Below, piece by piece: positions 5,342-39,087 of a DNA stretch of 64,000 nt. This DNA comes from Thermomicrobiales bacterium (GTDB lineage: Bacteria; Chloroflexota; Chloroflexia; Thermomicrobiales; UBA6265): assembly GCA_019637585.1 (NCBI GenBank), contig JAHBVL010000001.1:310001-374000 (forward strand). The letters run 5' to 3'. Each line of letters begins with the position of its first letter. The first letter of the stretch is position 1. Both the position numbers and the translations under genes were made by a program. A model generated the notes under the pieces. It made no database searches and had not been told where the DNA came from. It saw only the letters and a list, made by a program, of their open reading frames with translations.

Positions 5342-6241
5342 CTACCGGGTTCGCATCGTCGGGTCGAGCTGATCTCTGAGGGCGTCGCCCAGGAGATTGA
5401 ATCCCAGCACGGCAATGGAGATGGCCAGACCCGGGAAGATCGCCACCGACGGGGCGAGCTCCATGTAGCGGCGACCATCGCCCAGCATCGTTCCCCACGA
5501 CGGGTCGGGGGGCTGGGTGCCCAATCCGAGAAAGGACAGCCCTGCTTCGGCGAGAATCGCTGAGGAAAAGGCCAGTGTCGTTTGAACGATCAACGGCGCT
5601 GAGATATTCGGCAGCAGATAGCGCAGCATGATGCGAAAGGGGCGCACTCCGGTCGCCCGGGCGCTCTCCACATATTGCTCCTGCATCACGACCAGCACCG
5701 ATCCCCTGATGATGCGGGCAAAACCAGACGATTGCACGATGCCGATCGCCAGCATCGCCGTGGCCATGCTCGGCCCGAGCACACTGGAAATGGCAATGAT
5801 CAGAATGAGTCCGGGAAAGGCCAGCATCGTGTCGACGACACGCTGGAGCAGACTGTCGATGATGCCAAGGTAGTAGCCGGAAACCAGACCGATGACGCCG
5901 CCGATGCCCAGGGCAATCGTCACGGAGATCACACCAACCATCAGCGCGACGCGCGCGCCGTAGATGATGCGGCTGAGTGTGTCGCGCCCATACTGATCGG
6001 TGCCGAGCCAGTAAGGACTTCCTGGCGAGAGGAGCCGCTTCGCCGGCTGGGCGATCGGGTCGAATGGCGCCAGCCATGGGGCAAAGAGCGCGCAGAAAAT
6101 GAGGAGCGCCACGATACCGACGCCGATCGCCCCGACCGGCGTGCGGACGATTCTGAAGAGGGTGGATCGTTTCCACGCTGGAGTCGCGCCACCTCCTCCC
6201 GTGGTTGCCGCAGCTTCGGCGATTGTCAGCGAAGTTGCCAT
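5342..6241 (-). CDS. ABC transporter permease, DppC/OppC type
   Basis: A 299-residue inner-membrane permease of the dipeptide/oligopeptide/nickel class. The sequence shows the N-terminal segment with FAPWLAPFDPIAQ, then GTDQYGRDTLSRIIYGAR, which is diagnostic of DppC-type subunits. The EAA-like coupling loop ESARATGVRPFRIMLRYLLPN contacts the ATPase. The start at ATG 6241 is preceded by GAGAACGAG. It follows the DppB-type gene by 31 bases and converges on gntR. No ATP-binding subunit gene is present in the window. Confidence 0.95.
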   Translation of the reverse strand: MATSLTIAEAAATTGGGGATPAWKRSTLFRIVRTPVGAIGVGIVALLIFCALFAPWLAPFDPIAQPAKRLLSPGSPYWLGTDQYGRDTLSRIIYGARVALMVGVISVTIALGIGGVIGLVSGYYLGIIDSLLQRVVDTMLAFPGLILIIAISSVLGPSMATAMLAIGIVQSSGFARIIRGSVLVVMQEQYVESARATGVRPFRIMLRYLLPNISAPLIVQTTLAFSSAILAEAGLSFLGLGTQPPDPSWGTMLGDGRRYMELAPSVAIFPGLAISIAVLGFNLLGDALRDQLDPTMRTR

Positions 6242-30205: not shown

Positions 30206-30228
30206 TTTAGTCAGTATTCTTGAGTAAA
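30206..30228 (+). promoter_or_regulatory. candidate AbiEi operator overlapping the start codon
   Basis: TTTAGTCA (30206-30213) and TTGAGTAAA (30220-30228) are near-perfect inverted arms spaced by 6 bases, and the last A is the first base of the abiEi ATG. A TATCAT element at 30192-30197 is placed as a -10 box. AbiEi antitoxins are known to repress their own operon through inverted repeats, so this is a likely autoregulatory site. Confidence 0.5.
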
Positions 30229-30842
30229 TGGGGGACACTATTCGCAAATCAGTTGACTATCAGTGCCTTGTCGAAACAGCCGCCACCCAGCACGGCCATT
30301 TCACTCGTGCCCAGGCAGCGGCTTGCGGTTACGCCACCAATCTCATCGCGCATCACACACGGCAGGGCAACTTTGTCCGAATTCATCGAGGCGTCTATCG
30401 GCTGCGCGACTACCCTTCTTCACCGATAGACCCCATCGTTGCGGCGTGGCTCGCCGTTGGCAAGGAACGAGCAGTCGTTTCGCATGAAACCGCACTGCGG
30501 ATTCACGATCTGAGCGACGTCATTCCCAATGCTATCCATCTGACCGTGCCGCGTACCTCCCACAACCATCCAAAGCTCCCCAACGTGCAAGTCCATACGA
30601 CCACAAGAACGCCCGGTCCTTCAGACGTTGTCTGGCGGGAGGGTCTGCGCGTAACCTCAGTCGCCCGCACCATCGCCGATACTGCTGAGAAGGGCGTCGG
30701 CCCGGAACAGGTCGAAATGGCCATACGGCAAGCCATCGCTCAGGGATTGACCACACCGCGGCGTCTCCGTGCCGCTGTCTCCGGACGCAGCCAGCGCGTG
30801 CAGATCCTGACAGAACGAGCGATTCAAAGCACCGCTCCATGA
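30228..30842 (+). CDS. AbiEi family antitoxin / transcriptional repressor
   Basis: A 204-residue type IV antitoxin. The N-terminal winged-helix region (QHGHFTRAQAAACGYATNLI, GNFVRIHRGVYRLRDYP) is typical of the AbiEi antitoxin N-terminal domain. A C-terminal AbiEi_4-like domain (SHETALRIHDLSDVIPNAIHLTVPRT, REGLRVTSVARTIADTAEKG) follows. It neutralises the partner nucleotidyltransferase toxin and represses the operon. The stop overlaps the toxin ATG by 4 bases (ATGA). The ribosome site is poor and the leader appears short. It marks the left border of the defence-rich region. Confidence 0.9.
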   Translation: MGDTIRKSVDYQCLVETAATQHGHFTRAQAAACGYATNLIAHHTRQGNFVRIHRGVYRLRDYPSSPIDPIVAAWLAVGKERAVVSHETALRIHDLSDVIPNAIHLTVPRTSHNHPKLPNVQVHTTTRTPGPSDVVWREGLRVTSVARTIADTAEKGVGPEQVEMAIRQAIAQGLTTPRRLRAAVSGRSQRVQILTERAIQSTAP

Positions 30843-31708
30843 GGTACGCAAACGGCGCCGCGTTCAGAACCGCAATCGAACAGCGTCTGGCCAATGAGGC
30901 AGATGGCAGGCCCGCACACTTCTTCGATAGGCGTCGCAAGATGATCGTTTTCGATCGCTACCTGGCCAGATTACTTGTGGTTGCTCCCGGTCGGTGGGTT
31001 CTGAAAGGTGGAGTGGCCCTCAATTTCCGGCTTCGGGACAGCGCTCGAGCCACGCTGGATCTCGACCTTGCCAGTGATCTCGACGAAGGAGATGTGCTCG
31101 ACTTCCTCACCGATGCTGCTGAACTCGACCTGGGAGACTACTTCTCCTTCGCAGTGGAGCACGCAGATGCATTCGTTGCAGAGGAACTCGCAGGCGCCAT
31201 GCGGTTTCGAGTGAGGGCGGTGCTGGCTGGCCGGCCATTCGAAACAGTCACGATTGACGTCAATACCAGCGAGCCGTTTCCCGAGGAACCGGAGATAGTG
31301 TCAGGAATCGACTTTCTTCGATTTGCCGATATCCCTCCGATCGAGGTGCCCGCCACTCGACTCACTCAGCATCTGGCCGAGAAGTTGCATGCCTACACGC
31401 GCAGTTACGGACGCGGGCATCACAGCAGCAGGGTCAAAGACCTTGTTGACATCGCACTCATCATCGAAGCAAGCGAGCTCGAAATCGAAGACATTACGCA
31501 TCAGATCGAACAGACATTTTTGCAAAGATCAACGCACGCGGTACCCCTGACTCTTCCCGCGCCTCCCGCAACGTGGACCGTGCCATATCGGACAATGGCA
31601 GATGAGGTCGGCATCGATCCGTCAATCGATGACGCTCTCAGGCTGGCACAGGAGTTCTTTGACCCTGTTCTCAAGAACATCGACCAAAGAGCGAAACAGA
31701 GCCGCTAA
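30839..31708 (+). CDS. AbiEii/AbiGii family nucleotidyltransferase toxin
   Basis: A 289-residue toxin with the AbiEii nucleotidyltransferase fold. VLKGGVALNFRLRDSARATLDLDLA holds the GG motif and the D-x-D metal ligands. RVKDLVDIALI near residue 200 is the conserved basic/acidic second motif. Such toxins act by transferring nucleotides to tRNA or by other nucleotidylation, halting growth on phage infection. It is translationally coupled to the upstream antitoxin. No frameshift is seen, so the system looks intact. Confidence 0.92.
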   Translation: MRYANGAAFRTAIEQRLANEADGRPAHFFDRRRKMIVFDRYLARLLVVAPGRWVLKGGVALNFRLRDSARATLDLDLASDLDEGDVLDFLTDAAELDLGDYFSFAVEHADAFVAEELAGAMRFRVRAVLAGRPFETVTIDVNTSEPFPEEPEIVSGIDFLRFADIPPIEVPATRLTQHLAEKLHAYTRSYGRGHHSSRVKDLVDIALIIEASELEIEDITHQIEQTFLQRSTHAVPLTLPAPPATWTVPYRTMADEVGIDPSIDDALRLAQEFFDPVLKNIDQRAKQSR

Positions 31709-33433: not shown

Positions 33434-33770
33434 CTACGCCATGTTCCAGAAATCCGGGTCGAATCGTTCGAAGATTGGAAAAGCATGACGCTCAGGGGCA
33501 ATCACCAAGAGCGCGCGCATTGCCCGAGTCATTGCGACGGACAGGGTTCGTTTCATCCGGAGTAGCTCCTCCTCATAATCTTCCGGTGGGGCCGACTGGG
33601 TCGAGTCCGGTAGACCGCCCCTTCTACACAACCAGCCGCTTCTTGTTCTTGGCGTCCGGTTGCGGCTCCTCCTCTAGCATCTGCACCTTCTTTAGAATCT
33701 GCTGAATCTCCCCTGGCACAGCCAGGAGCTGGCTGGTGAAGGTCGGTTTGTGGGCTATCTCGTAGGTCAT
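33434..33770 (-). pseudogene. relic of a UvrD-like helicase with internal deletion
   Basis: Two pieces on the same strand look like the two ends of one gene. The start (33624-33770, 48 codons: MTYEIAHKPTFTSQLLAVPG, then PDAKNKKRLVV and a stop) resembles the short RelE-like N-terminal part found on some UvrD-type helicases. The second piece (33434 to about 33631) carries EEELLRMKRTLSVAMTRAM, the last motif region of superfamily I helicases, and ends FERFDPDFWNMA. The ATPase core between them is missing. It is a deletion relic in the defence-rich region. Confidence 0.6.
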
Positions 33771-34135: not shown

Positions 34136-34921
34136 TTGGCCAATCGAGTTATGTTTGGGTTTCCCGAGTTTGAGGATATCCCGCTACAAAACTCGCCGTT
34201 GCGAGAGGTGATTTGTCAGATTCGCTTTCCGACCATTCTGGCTATTGCGGAAGAGCCCCTGTTTAGATTTCAAGATCGCATTCGCAACAGGTTTCCTGAA
34301 CTCATCGAAGAACATGAGATGCAAGTTCGTTTTTCCGGCGAGCCAGGTTCCTTGTCATCTGAAATCGATTCGAAGCGACGTGTATTCCGGTTTACAGATG
34401 CCGAGAACAAGCGACAGGTCGCACTCGCTTCAGATTGGATCGCCGTTACTACGTCAGATTATGAAAGCTGGGAAAGCTTCGGCGAGGATGTACGCGCGGT
34501 TCTCGATTCGGCGACCTTTCTCTACCGGATTCCCTATGCAAAGCGGGTTGGGTTACGATACATAAACGAGGTACCAATTGCTCAAGACTCAAGTGACAGC
34601 AAACATATGAAGGGCCTCGTCCGCCCCGAATATGTTTCCCTCCTTCAAACCGACGCGTGGGACATGCCGGAAGAGTTCCTCACGCAGTTTTTGCTGACAA
34701 ATGGAGAAACCAAGCTTGTCACTCGCTTTTCGAGTCGCCTGGAGAATGATTCACACGTCCTGAGACTGGATTTCGACTGTTACAGGGAGGGCACCTCGCT
34801 TTCATTGGGCAACATCGACAGTCAGTTAACTGAGATGCATGATGTCATCTATCGCGCATTTCGCTGGAGCATTACTGAAGAGGCGCTGAGCAGTATGCAT
34901 CCTGTAATAAAGGAGGACTGA
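34136..34921 (+). CDS. TIGR04255 family protein
   Basis: A 261-residue protein of the sporadically distributed TIGR04255 family. The diagnostic beginning is LQNSPLREVICQIRFPTI (general pattern: leucine, small residues, P-L-x-E-V/A, I-x-F/I-R-F). YAKRVGLRYINEVPI and the terminal FRWSITEEALSSMHPVI also match the family. Its biochemical role is unknown. The start is TTG 34136 after a GAGAGAG run, or ATG 34151. It is the first of three closely packed genes (3-base gap to the next) with visibly lower G+C than the surroundings, suggesting horizontal acquisition. Confidence 0.8.
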   Translation: MANRVMFGFPEFEDIPLQNSPLREVICQIRFPTILAIAEEPLFRFQDRIRNRFPELIEEHEMQVRFSGEPGSLSSEIDSKRRVFRFTDAENKRQVALASDWIAVTTSDYESWESFGEDVRAVLDSATFLYRIPYAKRVGLRYINEVPIAQDSSDSKHMKGLVRPEYVSLLQTDAWDMPEEFLTQFLLTNGETKLVTRFSSRLENDSHVLRLDFDCYREGTSLSLGNIDSQLTEMHDVIYRAFRWSITEEALSSMHPVIKED

Positions 34922-34924
34922 GAG

Positions 34925-35605
34925 ATGCCGACACTCTCTTACAATCCACATAGTGCTTTCGATAGCCTGAACGAGGAATTGACGTCAGCGGGCTTCTTCA
35001 GTCATTCGAAACGCTTCTCCTGGTCGGGTGCGCCGATCGGTCCCGTTGAATTTTGGTGTTGGGGAGACGAACTGGATACTCTGCACTGGTTCGGGCCGAC
35101 ATCAACCGGAAGGTCGCCAGAGTTCCTATTCCAGTTCGCTGACCGGACTCGCCCAAGTTCTCTTTCCCTATCGCACGTTGAATCTATCGCACCAAGAGAG
35201 TCTGGGAATATCGACTCGATCTTTGAAATCATTGACTCCGCCAGCAAGCGGCTACAAGAATTGTCAAGGCTCGACGCGAATTGGGATTCATACGGTGCAC
35301 GTGCTGTTGGCGCGGCTGCCACGAGCCTAGCGTACCGATTGCTATTCGACGTCGCAAGGCGATCAATTGATCTTCGAATCCATCACGATAAGAGTGTCCG
35401 TCCCTGGTTTGTAGCTCCTCTCGCGGATGGCGGCATACAGATCGAATGGCGAAAGGTGGGCAGCGCCATCGAGGTGGAAATCGGCAATGACGGGAGTCTC
35501 GCGTATCTAATCGAGCATCGTGATGGTTGGTACGAAGATTCGGGAGCGTTGAACGACTCTGACTGGGAAACGCTGATTGACGCAGTTTGCCGATTTCTGA
35601 GCTGA
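34925..35605 (+). CDS. hypothetical protein, middle gene of TIGR04255 cassette
   Basis: A 226-residue soluble protein without signal peptide or membrane helix. The C-terminal half has RLDANWDSYGARAVGAAA and PWFVAPLADGGIQIEWRKVG followed by IEVEIGNDGSLAYLIEH. This NWDxYGA then GGIQxEW pattern I have seen described only in uncharacterised proteins. The beta-rich end may form a small sandwich. It begins 3 bases after the TIGR04255-type gene and precedes the third gene by 18 bases. The three are likely cotranscribed, but the role is unknown. Confidence 0.75.
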   Translation: MPTLSYNPHSAFDSLNEELTSAGFFSHSKRFSWSGAPIGPVEFWCWGDELDTLHWFGPTSTGRSPEFLFQFADRTRPSSLSLSHVESIAPRESGNIDSIFEIIDSASKRLQELSRLDANWDSYGARAVGAAATSLAYRLLFDVARRSIDLRIHHDKSVRPWFVAPLADGGIQIEWRKVGSAIEVEIGNDGSLAYLIEHRDGWYEDSGALNDSDWETLIDAVCRFLS

Positions 35606-35623
35606 TCTACGGAGAGGTCAGGT

Positions 35624-35989
35624 GTGCCGGAGATACCGAATGAAGAAATTCTTTATCGGCGAATAGCCCCGCACCAACGCGAGGATGATGGCACGGTCAA
35701 TTCCAGTGCATTCAAGCGAAACAACGAATACGAGTCGCGGATATCAGTTGACAGGTCTTCACTTACATCACCGCAGGAAAGCGTCGACCGAGCAGGTCGA
35801 GCAGGTTTCTTCTTAGCGGCACTGCTCACAAGTGATGCGAGAAGATTGGACTTTGCTGTGGAGTGGGACCCCCTACCGGATAACGATTCCCACACTCTCA
35901 TTGTCGGTGAGAACGATCGCATACGAAGCAGGAAGCTAGCTTCGAAATGTAGGCTACTTCCCGGAGTCACTAGTCGCAATTGCGATTGA
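35624..35989 (+). CDS. hypothetical protein, third gene of TIGR04255 cassette
   Basis: A 121-residue soluble protein: EEILYRRIAPHQREDDGTVNSSAFK at the start, then SVDRSSLTSPQESVDRAG and PLPDNDSHTLIVGENDRI. The YRRI, SSAFK and SVDR order reads as a conserved small family without assigned function. GGAGAGG lies 6 bases before the GTG at 35624. It completes the cassette of three same-strand genes. The leftward restriction-modification relic begins 17 bases further on. Confidence 0.65.
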   Translation: MPEIPNEEILYRRIAPHQREDDGTVNSSAFKRNNEYESRISVDRSSLTSPQESVDRAGRAGFFLAALLTSDARRLDFAVEWDPLPDNDSHTLIVGENDRIRSRKLASKCRLLPGVTSRNCD

Positions 35990-36006: not shown

Positions 36007-36138
36007 TCACCCCACCACGCCAGCGCACCGGTCCCACGCCTCCAGACACAACCGCTTCGTCCGGTACTCGTCGAACGCCTTCTCGTCGTTGCGCTGGGCG
36101 ACGGGGAACTGGTCAAGAATGTAGCTCAGGCTACTTTG
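36007..36138 (-). pseudogene. C-terminal relic of a restriction-modification protein
   Basis: A leftward frame of about 44 codons reads LSYILDQFPVAQRNDEKAF and then EYRTKRLCLEAWDRCAG before a stop at 36007. This resembles the extreme C-terminus of Eco57I/type IIG-like methylase-restriction proteins. There is no start and no methylase motif in the window, so only the tail survives. It lies between the TIGR04255 cassette and the nuclease-like gene. Confidence 0.45.
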
Positions 36139-36155
36139 AAAGCCACACGGTCGAT

Positions 36156-37235
36156 CTATTCCAGTCTGTCTCTTGAGGCTTCCTCGTAGGCAGCAGCGAG
36201 AGCCGTCAAGAGTTCTTCGGAGACACCGCGCACGGTGTTACCTTGGCCAATCTTTGGAAGGGTTCCCGACTGGTCGAAGTGCTGCAATGCTCCCGGCGCT
36301 CGGCTCTCGAACACAGATCTCCAAAGGGACAAGTACGCGCCCTTATCGTTCCAGATTGTGACGAGACCTGCGTCGACTCCTGGAAGGTACGGCAGGAGCG
36401 TCATTCTTCCGACGCCTCTCCAGCTCTTCAGTCGAGCGAGCCCTGAGCTCTCGAGCTGTCTAGCCCACTCCACGAGGCGGCGCAGCTCGGCTCGTTCAGC
36501 TTCGGGTGCGGACTCGATCGCATCGACGAACTCGGAGACCTCCTGCCAGTGACCCTTGGGTTGCACGCTGGCTGTCGCTGTGTCGTTTCTGGAGTCCAAC
36601 GTGTCACTTTCCCGCTCGGGATCAACCCTGCGCGGTATGACGACCTTTGATTCATCAATGTCGTAGCTTGCCACCGTGATGAGGTCGATGATTAATTTGT
36701 CGGTAACAGCCTCGAGGTATCCTACGAGTTTCACCAACTCAGGTGGGGTGCCATCCAGCACGATGACGAGTCTGAACCGGCCGGATTCGAGGCTGCCTTC
36801 AAGCCCTGCCTCAAATGCCGATGGGTCAATCGACTCACTTTGATCGACTGTTCTGGCCGCGTCAAAAAGCGATGAGTACCCGGCACGTGCTAGGTGGGAT
36901 CCTAGAATCTGCTTCTCCAGGACCTGTACCGACTCGCCCCGAAGATATGCAGCATATGTCAGGATTTGGGCAATGACCGCCCGGCGAGCTTCACTGTTGT
37001 CGGCCAGCTTGATTTCGATAATCACCAGGCGCCCGGTTGCCTCTATCCCTACAAGATCAGCACGATAAGCGCCTATCGAGACTTCGCGACCAACTATTGC
37101 GATCTGGGGTTCTCCGGCAAGTGGGAGCATCTGAGGGGCCGCCGCAACCATGTTGTGCAGCGTCGCTTCATCCGGGAAACCAGCAGGTCTTTGCAGGCGC
37201 CAGCCAGATTCGTCCTGTTTCCAGATGTCAGTCAT
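36156..37235 (-). CDS. PD-(D/E)XK nuclease-like protein (NucS/DUF91-type core)
   Basis: A 359-residue protein. The first 110 residues have the restriction-endonuclease core: E23 in PDEATL, D60 in AYRADLVGIE, E74-I-K76 in VIIEIKLAD, and the later QILTYAAYL (QxxxY) helix. The middle includes RFRLVIVLDGTPPELVKL, and the C-terminal third (TLLPYLPGVDAGLVTIW) is of unknown type. Family members cleave or bind branched or foreign DNA. Given its place beside AbiE and RM relics, a defence role is plausible but unproven. It has no clear operon partner. Confidence 0.7.
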   Translation of the reverse strand: MTDIWKQDESGWRLQRPAGFPDEATLHNMVAAAPQMLPLAGEPQIAIVGREVSIGAYRADLVGIEATGRLVIIEIKLADNSEARRAVIAQILTYAAYLRGESVQVLEKQILGSHLARAGYSSLFDAARTVDQSESIDPSAFEAGLEGSLESGRFRLVIVLDGTPPELVKLVGYLEAVTDKLIIDLITVASYDIDESKVVIPRRVDPERESDTLDSRNDTATASVQPKGHWQEVSEFVDAIESAPEAERAELRRLVEWARQLESSGLARLKSWRGVGRMTLLPYLPGVDAGLVTIWNDKGAYLSLWRSVFESRAPGALQHFDQSGTLPKIGQGNTVRGVSEELLTALAAAYEEASRDRLE

Positions 37236-38590: not shown

Positions 38591-38638
38591 GTGTCGAAGT
38601 CACGATGTACGTCTGAACGGAGTACGCAAGGACCCCAG

Positions 38639-38863
38639 ATGCCACGAAAGCTTCGAGAATTGAGGGCAGAATTGCGCCGAGCAGGGTTTCGCCTTGATCG
38701 CCAGAAAGGTAGCCACCAAACATGGCTCCATCCACAAATGCCGGAGCTCCGGGTTATTCTGTCAGGGTCCGACGGCGATGACGCACTGGTGTATCAAGAG
38801 CGTCAGATTCGAGAGGCGATCAACTGTCTTCTGGAGTCTGACAAAGGTGGGACGAGATTGTGA
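38639..38863 (+). CDS. hicA: HicA toxin
   Basis: A 74-residue mRNA interferase of the HicA/YcfA family with a double-stranded-RNA-binding-like fold. LRRAGFRLDRQKGSHQTWLH contains the catalytic His (G-S-H). The end of the toxin overlaps the antitoxin start by 4 bases (GTGA). I chose ATG 38639, where family similarity starts. It is an intact toxin-antitoxin pair downstream of rhmD. Confidence 0.93.
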   Translation: MPRKLRELRAELRRAGFRLDRQKGSHQTWLHPQMPELRVILSGSDGDDALVYQERQIREAINCLLESDKGGTRL

Positions 38864-39087
38864 GCGCTTCGCATTACACGATGATCATCCAGTGGTCAGA
38901 TGAGGATGATGCCTATGTCGTTTCTCTGCCGGAGTGGCGCGACCACGTTGCCAACCCTGTCACCCATGGATTGACCTATGAGCAGGCCGCGGCGAACGCC
39001 CAGGACGTGCTCCAGCTGCTCATCGAATCGGCGCTGTCCCACGGCCAGTCTCTCCCAGAGGTGGCCTTCGTTGCGGGCAGACCATAG
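38860..39087 (+). CDS. hicB: HicB antitoxin
   Basis: A 75-residue HicB-like antitoxin: MIIQWSDEDDAYVVSLPEW followed by HGLTYEQAAANAQDVLQLLI is the partially degraded RNase H-like fold of HicB. It is short and lacks a C-terminal ribbon-helix-helix or helix-turn-helix, so it may only neutralise HicA and not bind DNA itself. The start is GTG 38860, inside the toxin stop. A hairpin with T-rich tail follows at 39240. Confidence 0.93.
   Translation: MSASHYTMIIQWSDEDDAYVVSLPEWRDHVANPVTHGLTYEQAAANAQDVLQLLIESALSHGQSLPEVAFVAGRP

What the first reader, a model, noticed from the sequence alone, without database searches (positions are those of the whole stretch)
34136..35989. Three-gene TIGR04255-led cassette in a defence-rich region
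A TIGR04255-type gene, a gene with NWDSYGA and GGIQIEW motifs, and a small YRRI/SSAFK gene are packed with gaps of 3 and 18 bases. Base composition is visibly lower in G+C than the flanks. They sit between toxin-antitoxin genes and relics of a helicase and a restriction system. None has a known biochemical role. Sporadic, compact and island-located genes of this kind are good candidates for an uncharacterised anti-phage or conflict system.
Basis: partly seen in the sequence, partly recalled or inferred. Interest (0 to 1): 0.68.

Follow-up and report, generated by a model that had tools for sequence, protein, structure and literature searches.

The report
Three-gene module with ADP-ribosyltransferase-like protein
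Three small neighbouring genes turn out to be a recurring bacterial module whose last protein is predicted to be a tiny ADP-ribosyltransferase-like enzyme guarded by its neighbour, which makes it a testable candidate toxin-antidote or anti-phage system.

Summary
In detail: three packed genes, low G+C. Gene A is TIGR04255 (142 bits, cut-off 30). Genes B and C match PADLOC's unvalidated candidate PDC-M32, so that pair was already flagged; I saw no source for the A+B+C unit.

The unit recurs. A scan with B's motif alone gave 46 loci in several phyla: C is adjacent in 37 of 46, TIGR04255 directly upstream in 16 of 46. In Planctomycetota, 25 of 25 C places have B upstream, 16 also A.

C has a predicted compact ADP-ribosyltransferase (ART) fold (best match Tpt1/KptA, Z 8.5, 94 residues). 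Besides the start Met, its only invariant residues in 26 diverse sequences (R12, S41, H90) lie on the strands where ARTs carry their triad. Sequence profiles give no support.

C lacks B in only 2 of 48 places in two phyla, both truncated; broken C beside intact B was seen 8 times. B looks like antidote, C like toxin.

Elsewhere A leads operons with other tails, so it may be a shared controller, by analogy with CmdTAC. Defence-island enrichment was weak. Nothing is shown biochemically.

The parts
34136..34921 (+). gene A, TIGR04255 family, 261 aa; proposed sensor or controller
   Evidence: NCBIfam TIGR04255 E 2.9e-41; AF2 model pLDDT 78.3, pTM 0.78; guanido-kinase-like topology, Z 8.4 over 169 residues
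34925..35605 (+). gene B, 226 aa; variable N-terminal region plus C-terminal domain with WDSYGA and DGGIQIEW; proposed antidote
   Evidence: PADLOC PDC-M32A E 3.2e-9, profile 261-367 of 375 only; alignments
35234..35602 (+). conserved domain of gene B, helix-helix-4 strands-helix
   Evidence: AF2 model of B domain plus C, mean pLDDT 91.1
35624..35989 (+). gene C, 121 aa; predicted minimal ART fold; invariant R12, S41, H90; proposed toxin or effector
   Evidence: PADLOC PDC-M32B E 2.4e-6; VIA-align rows 1-11; invariant columns

Best explanation
A tripartite toxin-antidote module. C is a small ART-fold enzyme that would use NAD+ to modify a cellular or phage nucleic acid or protein, or to break down NAD+. 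B, encoded just before C, binds and restrains C. A, the head gene, senses infection or stress and controls B, so that C is released when A is engaged. Shown: the three genes recur as one unit; C almost never occurs without B while B occurs without working C; A is exchanged for other head genes or fused domains. Inferred from predicted structure: the ART fold of C and its R-S-H site. Inferred by analogy with CmdTAC only: that A is the sensor or stabiliser, and that the outcome is abortive defence.
For: Recurrence: 46 loci found with B's motif alone; C adjacent in 37 of 46 (one, L045, a frameshifted relic), A directly upstream in 16 of 46 at E 1e-3 (one, L068, a 75-aa fragment). Independent phylum: 25 distinct C places in 22 of 294 Planctomycetota genomes; B upstream in 24 of 25 by HMM and in the last (L231) by eye; A upstream in 16 of 25. 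Own phylum: 23 C places in 23 of 400 genomes; B directly upstream in 21 of 23 (12 of these divergent and judged by eye); the two orphans L146 and L147 lack the N-terminal strand with the Arg. Converse: intact B beside a broken C in L031, L035, L040/L148, L055, L223, L226, L232, L236; a 77-aa B domain alone in four near-identical viral contigs. Fold of C: the top 11 of the VIA rows cover C and are Tpt1/KptA (10 rows, best Z 8.5, 94 aligned, 3.0 A) and AvrPphF ORF2 (Z 7.4); DarT, SdeA and pierisin ART domains follow lower. Invariant R12, S41, H90 in 26 of 26 aligned C proteins fall on predicted strands 1, 2 and 5. Precedent: CmdTAC, an ART toxin-antitoxin-chaperone defence system (PMC11618068, abstract and passages).
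Against: Profile comparison of C with Tpt1/KptA, DUF952 and RES families gave no signal, probability 0.1 each. Foldseek found no PDB match to the B-C model at E 0.001; VIA only re-ranks Foldseek's candidates, and Z near 8 is close to what models without clear relatives reach (note). The His in place of the usual Glu may mean another chemistry or none. A shows no SecB or other chaperone match in Pfam. B N-terminal extensions are longer where A is present in one set but not in the Planctomycetota set. Defence-gene enrichment is weak.
Confidence: 0.42

Rival explanations
1. C is a Tpt1-like RNA or DNA end-processing enzyme that repairs ends, with B as partner and A as recruiter. The cassette heals damage caused by nucleases rather than poisoning cells.
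For: The closest folds to C are Tpt1/KptA 2'-phosphotransferases; KptA serves RNA repair in phage conflicts (PMC9503650, passages).
Against: C lacks the N-terminal lobe of Tpt1 (121 aa against roughly 180-aa chains); a repair enzyme need not be accompanied by B in 46 of 48 places nor decay beside an intact B.
Confidence: 0.18
2. C is a catalytically inactive ART fold that binds NAD+ or ADP-ribose, and A-B-C is a sensing or regulatory complex without a toxin.
For: Non-canonical R-S-H site; no sequence kinship with active ARTs.
Against: Three residues at the triad positions are invariant across phyla; C is the component that decays while B stays, as expected of a harmful partner.
Confidence: 0.2
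3. An ordinary non-conflict operon that spreads horizontally, for instance a metabolic or stress regulator.
For: Some copies sit beside housekeeping genes, e.g. a gyrase A-like gene upstream in L056 (by eye); PADLOC enrichment is weak.
Against: Sporadic presence (C in 23 of 400 and 22 of 294 genomes), PADLOC PDC-M32 match, lone B in viral contigs, low G+C.
Confidence: 0.15

Closest known systems
PADLOC candidate system PDC-M32 (PDC-M32A + PDC-M32B)
   Same: Gene B matches the C-terminal third of PDC-M32A, gene C matches PDC-M32B, same order
   Different: PDC-M32A carries about 260 N-terminal residues that B lacks; here a separate TIGR04255 gene stands in front. No function has been assigned in the one paper I found that names it (PMC12429752, passages)
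CmdTAC toxin-antitoxin-chaperone system
   Same: Three-gene unit with an ART-fold toxin (here predicted) and two partners
   Different: A has no sequence match to SecB in Pfam; gene order differs (recalled for CmdTAC); kinship of C with CmdT was not tested
Tpt1/KptA RNA 2'-phosphotransferase
   Same: Best fold match of C
   Different: No N-terminal lobe, different site residues, no profile similarity
TIGR04255 (sporadTIGR04255)
   Same: Gene A is a member
   Different: NCBIfam gives the family no function; the held library has no paper naming it

Membership tests
TIGR04255 | score above NCBIfam cut-off of 30 bits | tested here: met
   142 bits
PDC-M32 | adjacent PDC-M32A and PDC-M32B proteins | tested here: inconclusive
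   Both match (E 3.2e-9 and 2.4e-6) but A only over profile 261-367 of 375; PADLOC's own cut-offs were not applied
ADP-ribosyltransferase superfamily | ART fold | tested here: inconclusive
   Predicted model only: Z 8.5, 94 residues, 3.0 A, top 11 rows ART; no Foldseek hit at E 0.001
ADP-ribosyltransferase superfamily | sequence-profile kinship with known ART families | tested here: not met
   hhalign against KptA, DUF952, RES: probability 0.1; three families only
ADP-ribosyltransferase superfamily | catalytic triad (R-S-E or H-Y-E type, recalled) | tested here: inconclusive
   R12, S41, H90 invariant; third position is His
ADP-ribosyltransferase superfamily | NAD+ use | not testable with these tools
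   needs biochemistry
toxin-antitoxin module | toxin not found without antitoxin | tested here: met
   B beside C in 46 of 48 places, the two exceptions truncated; part judged by eye
toxin-antitoxin module | toxicity of C relieved by B | not testable with these tools
   needs expression
toxin-antitoxin-chaperone (TAC) | SecB-like chaperone gene | tested here: not met
   No SecB match for A-type proteins in Pfam at E 1; structural kinship not excluded
toxin-antitoxin-chaperone (TAC) | antitoxin extension tied to the chaperone | tested here: inconclusive
   0 of 24 B with A against 12 of 20 without have under 50 residues before the Trp; not reproduced, 13 against 7

The most novel reading that the evidence does not exclude
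TIGR04255 proteins are a second, SecB-unrelated kind of infection sensor or antitoxin guardian that heads a family of tripartite modules with exchangeable toxin parts: an ART (this cassette), an apparent HEPN-type protein, and a 'QDCDI/SQSCDL' protein. C founds a new class of minimal ART toxins with an R-S-H site.
Probability: 0.3. Interest if true: 0.82.

Novelty: new variant of a known kind. Interest (0 to 1): 0.62.

Why it matters
It gives three families without assigned function a joint, testable mechanism: a predicted enzyme with three named residues, an antidote, and a head gene that is reused with other tails. If true, TIGR04255 would be a general handle for finding further conflict systems, and the ART repertoire of bacterial immunity would gain a very small member.

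Tried and rejected
Considered and rejected: A has a solved relative. The only PDB sequence hit, 9hnh (E 5.5e-4), is named in a paper on designed solenoid proteins (search listing) and aligns only by a short repeat. B or C have solved relatives by sequence: only chance hits. A as an active guanido kinase: the fold list is headed by arginine kinases and McsB (Z 8.4) and Foldseek by AdoMetDC prozyme (E 3.9e-5), but the family-conserved residues do not suggest a kinase site to me; left open. Fold of B: only scattered weak rows (Mediator subunit, CapZ); no claim. SecB did not appear among the 50 rows shown for A; that excludes nothing.

Tests that went against me or gave little: hhalign of C against ART families; B-extension association not reproduced; weak PADLOC contrast, where the tool shows only the 25 most frequent families (of 42 and 56), 135 of 182 neighbour proteins (from 37 loci) and 133 of 185 control proteins (from 36 control stretches, all contig C5 of the same genomes) were scanned, and near-identical cyanobacterial and Hymenobacter loci were dropped first. 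In some searches I also dropped duplicates and fused PDC-M32A-like proteins, and regrouped L056 and L059 by hand after seeing overlapping genes; no correction for relatedness. HEPN naming of A-operon tails is by eye: Pfam gave no hit. Viral scans with A, C and an A homologue found no relative; phage records held no match to B or to the A homologue. The BFVD search returned short phage proteins without function (best E 4.5e-4, TMt 0.76), but the table does not say whether they match B or C. Promoter and terminator scans were at chance level.

Full report
WHAT IS THERE. Three + strand ORFs, A 34136-34921 (261 aa), B 34925-35605 (226 aa), C 35624-35989 (121 aa), with gaps of 3 and 18 bases. Their G+C is 0.516; windows of equal length across the 64 kb average 0.620, SD 0.026. 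A matches TIGR04255 (E 2.9e-41). B and C match no Pfam or NCBIfam family above cut-off, but match PADLOC profiles PDC-M32A (E 3.2e-9, only profile positions 261-367 of 375) and PDC-M32B (E 2.4e-6). The window lies in an unnamed 3.94 Mb assembly with one TIGR04255 gene. One genome of the same order appears to be the one titled Thermomicrobiaceae (L006 and L057 show the same gene coordinates and lengths), so the phylum is taken to be Chloroflexota.

DOES THE CASSETTE RECUR? Yes. In the class, B-type PDC-M32A matches were found in 3 of 158 genomes and TIGR04255 in 16 of 158. A profile of B found 15 places in 14 of 400 phylum genomes. Among them A+B+C stand together in the window, L028, L030, L036 and L037; L036 has a divergent B and C, judged by eye, and L037 a 452-aa A over the TIGR04255 cut-off (67.6 bits). 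A second, motif-only scan of the collection of 84,980 species genomes with B gave 46 loci, with titles including Chloroflexi, Cyanobacteria, Planctomycetota, Acidobacteria, Gemmatimonadetes, Hymenobacter, Flavobacteriales, Betaproteobacteria and Actinomycetes. With profile HMMs built in the box from hand-picked members (E 1e-3), C lies beside B in 37 of 46 and A directly before B in 16 of 46. TIGR04255's own model is over its cut-off in 21 of the 41 of these genomes searched, not always at this locus. Other A-B-C members score over the TIGR04255 cut-off too: L030, L048, L076, L149, L155; L078 does not, 18 bits.

ASYMMETRY OF B AND C. A profile of C (26 rows) found 23 places in 23 of 400 genomes of the window's phylum. 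B or a B-like gene lies directly upstream in 21 of 23, in 12 of them divergent and recognised by eye from the P..DG...W pattern. The two exceptions match only model positions 44-123 and 31-123 and lack the strand with the Arg. In Planctomycetota 22 of 294 genomes gave 28 rows, 25 distinct places; B is upstream in 24 by HMM and in L231 by eye, A in 16 of 25. Fused long B forms occur (L216, L218, L236). The reverse is not true: B is intact where C carries a stop, a frameshift or a truncation in L031, L035, L040/L148, L055, L223, L226, L232 and L236, no C was seen after B in L032 and L042, and a 77-aa B domain stands alone in four near-identical viral contigs. This is the pattern of an antidote and a toxin.

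STRUCTURE. A was modelled from 16 sequences (pLDDT 78.3, pTM 0.78). Its fold list is led by guanido kinases (Z 8.4, 169 residues, 3.8 A) and, in Foldseek, AdoMetDC prozyme (E 3.9e-5). I read this as a duplicated alpha/beta sandwich, not as kinase activity. B's domain and C were modelled as one chain (39 sequences, pLDDT 91.1, pTM 0.66). All of the first 11 VIA rows cover the C part: ten Tpt1/KptA entries (best 8tg3, Z 8.5, 94 aligned, 3.0 A) and AvrPphF ORF2 (1s21, Z 7.4); CC0527 (Z 5.8), DarT (4.2), SdeA (4.1) and pierisin (3.5) follow. That AvrPphF ORF2 and CC0527 have ART-like folds, and that one entry labelled only APE0204 is a KptA, is recalled. Besides the start Met, the only invariant columns in 26 diverse C proteins are R12, S41 and H90; in the model they lie on strands 139-144, 169-174 and 220-224 (C residue = model residue minus 130), the 1st, 2nd and 5th strands of C, where ARTs carry their three site residues (recalled). 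In a wider set of 44 C proteins R12, S41 and H90 are kept in 88, 93 and 95%. Limits: no Foldseek hit at E 0.001, no profile kinship, middling Z.

GENE A IS A SHARED HEAD. In the 17 TIGR04255 places of the class (read) the following genes differ: B and C in the window, L014 and L021 (L021 is the same place as L036); an apparent HEPN-type small protein (by eye) in L011, L012, L016, L020, L023; a protein with SQSCDL or QDCDI-like motif in L009, L010, L013, L017, L019, L024; undecided in L015, L018, L022. On plasmids A again heads short operons: eight of the 15 records matched by the window's A were read, plus the two records matched by an A homologue; in Rhizobium etli, A. baumannii, Klebsiella, Vibrio and Chroococcidiopsis it is followed closely by two genes, in three of these one annotated as helix-turn-helix. 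In turn B-C can have other heads: a roughly 250-aa family in L033 and L034, a 97- to 101-aa gene in L044 and L217, or a fused N-terminal domain (L025, L039, L040). So the design looks modular: exchangeable head, antidote, effector.

MECHANISM. The best model is a tripartite toxin-antidote unit with an ART-like effector. The nearest worked example is CmdTAC, where a SecB-like chaperone is titrated by phage capsid protein, the antitoxin is degraded and an ART is freed (PMC11618068: abstract and passages read). In classic TAC modules an extension of the antitoxin makes it chaperone-dependent (PMC6377645: abstract read). I tested for such an extension: 0 of 24 B proteins with A against 12 of 20 without a recognised A have fewer than 50 residues before the conserved Trp, but the Planctomycetota set (13 against 7) did not repeat it, and several loci without A have other head genes. 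Undecided.

DEFENCE CONTEXT. PADLOC at E 1e-12 on 135 neighbour proteins matched 42 families, among those shown type IIG restriction, HEC-01A, PDC-S58, ApeA, SoFic, DrmB and DrmD; 133 control proteins from the same genomes matched 56 families, those shown being mostly RtcR-type regulators and PD-T4-6 kinases, with one type II methyltransferase and one CARF protein. The kinds differ, the amount does not clearly. Single neighbourhoods are suggestive: an HsdS-like gene beside L039 (by eye), and for A-type operons argonaute, VapC, Cas6 and methylase on a Thermus plasmid and type I restriction genes on two others.

NOVELTY. PDC-M32 is named in one held paper, which reports it in a Sinorhizobium prophage without function (PMC12429752, passages; found); another describes the guilt-by-embedding origin of such candidates (PMC12988326, passages). 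No held paper names TIGR04255. Preprints and supplements were not searched. What is new here, as far as those searches go, is the three-gene unit, the ART reading of C, the one-way dependence of C on B, and A as a reused head gene.

Noticed in passing
30228-31708 (+): AbiEi/AbiEii type IV toxin-antitoxin pair (PADLOC E 9e-63 and 3e-79)
   Followed up: partly
36156-37235 (-): Gene with NucS-like and PADLOC PDC-S11 similarity (E 1e-13) next to the cassette
   Followed up: no
38591-39087 (+): HicA-HicB toxin-antitoxin pair
   Followed up: no
L002-L005, about 5983-6216: 77-aa stand-alone B domain in near-identical viral contigs; could be a phage-borne antidote
   Followed up: partly
L090 4174-7753 (Rhizobium plasmid): TIGR04255 operon directly after multiubiquitin/ThiF/DUF6527 genes and near 7-cyano-7-deazaguanine synthase and dgt
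   Followed up: no
L088 (Thermus brockianus plasmid pTB1): TIGR04255 gene among argonaute, VapC, DNA methylase and Cas6 genes
   Followed up: no
L011, L012, L016, L020, L023: TIGR04255 followed by a 150-190 aa gene and an apparent HEPN-type gene; Pfam does not recognise those tested
   Followed up: partly
L026 5935-7240 (Acetobacter plasmid): Protein with two B domains followed by a gene annotated SspB, a ClpXP adaptor
   Followed up: no
L047 7617-8075: A second C-like gene about 1.3 kb downstream of the first B-C pair
   Followed up: no
33434-33631 (-) and about 36010-36170 (-): Apparent relics of a UvrD-type helicase and of a type II methyltransferase, by eye
   Followed up: no
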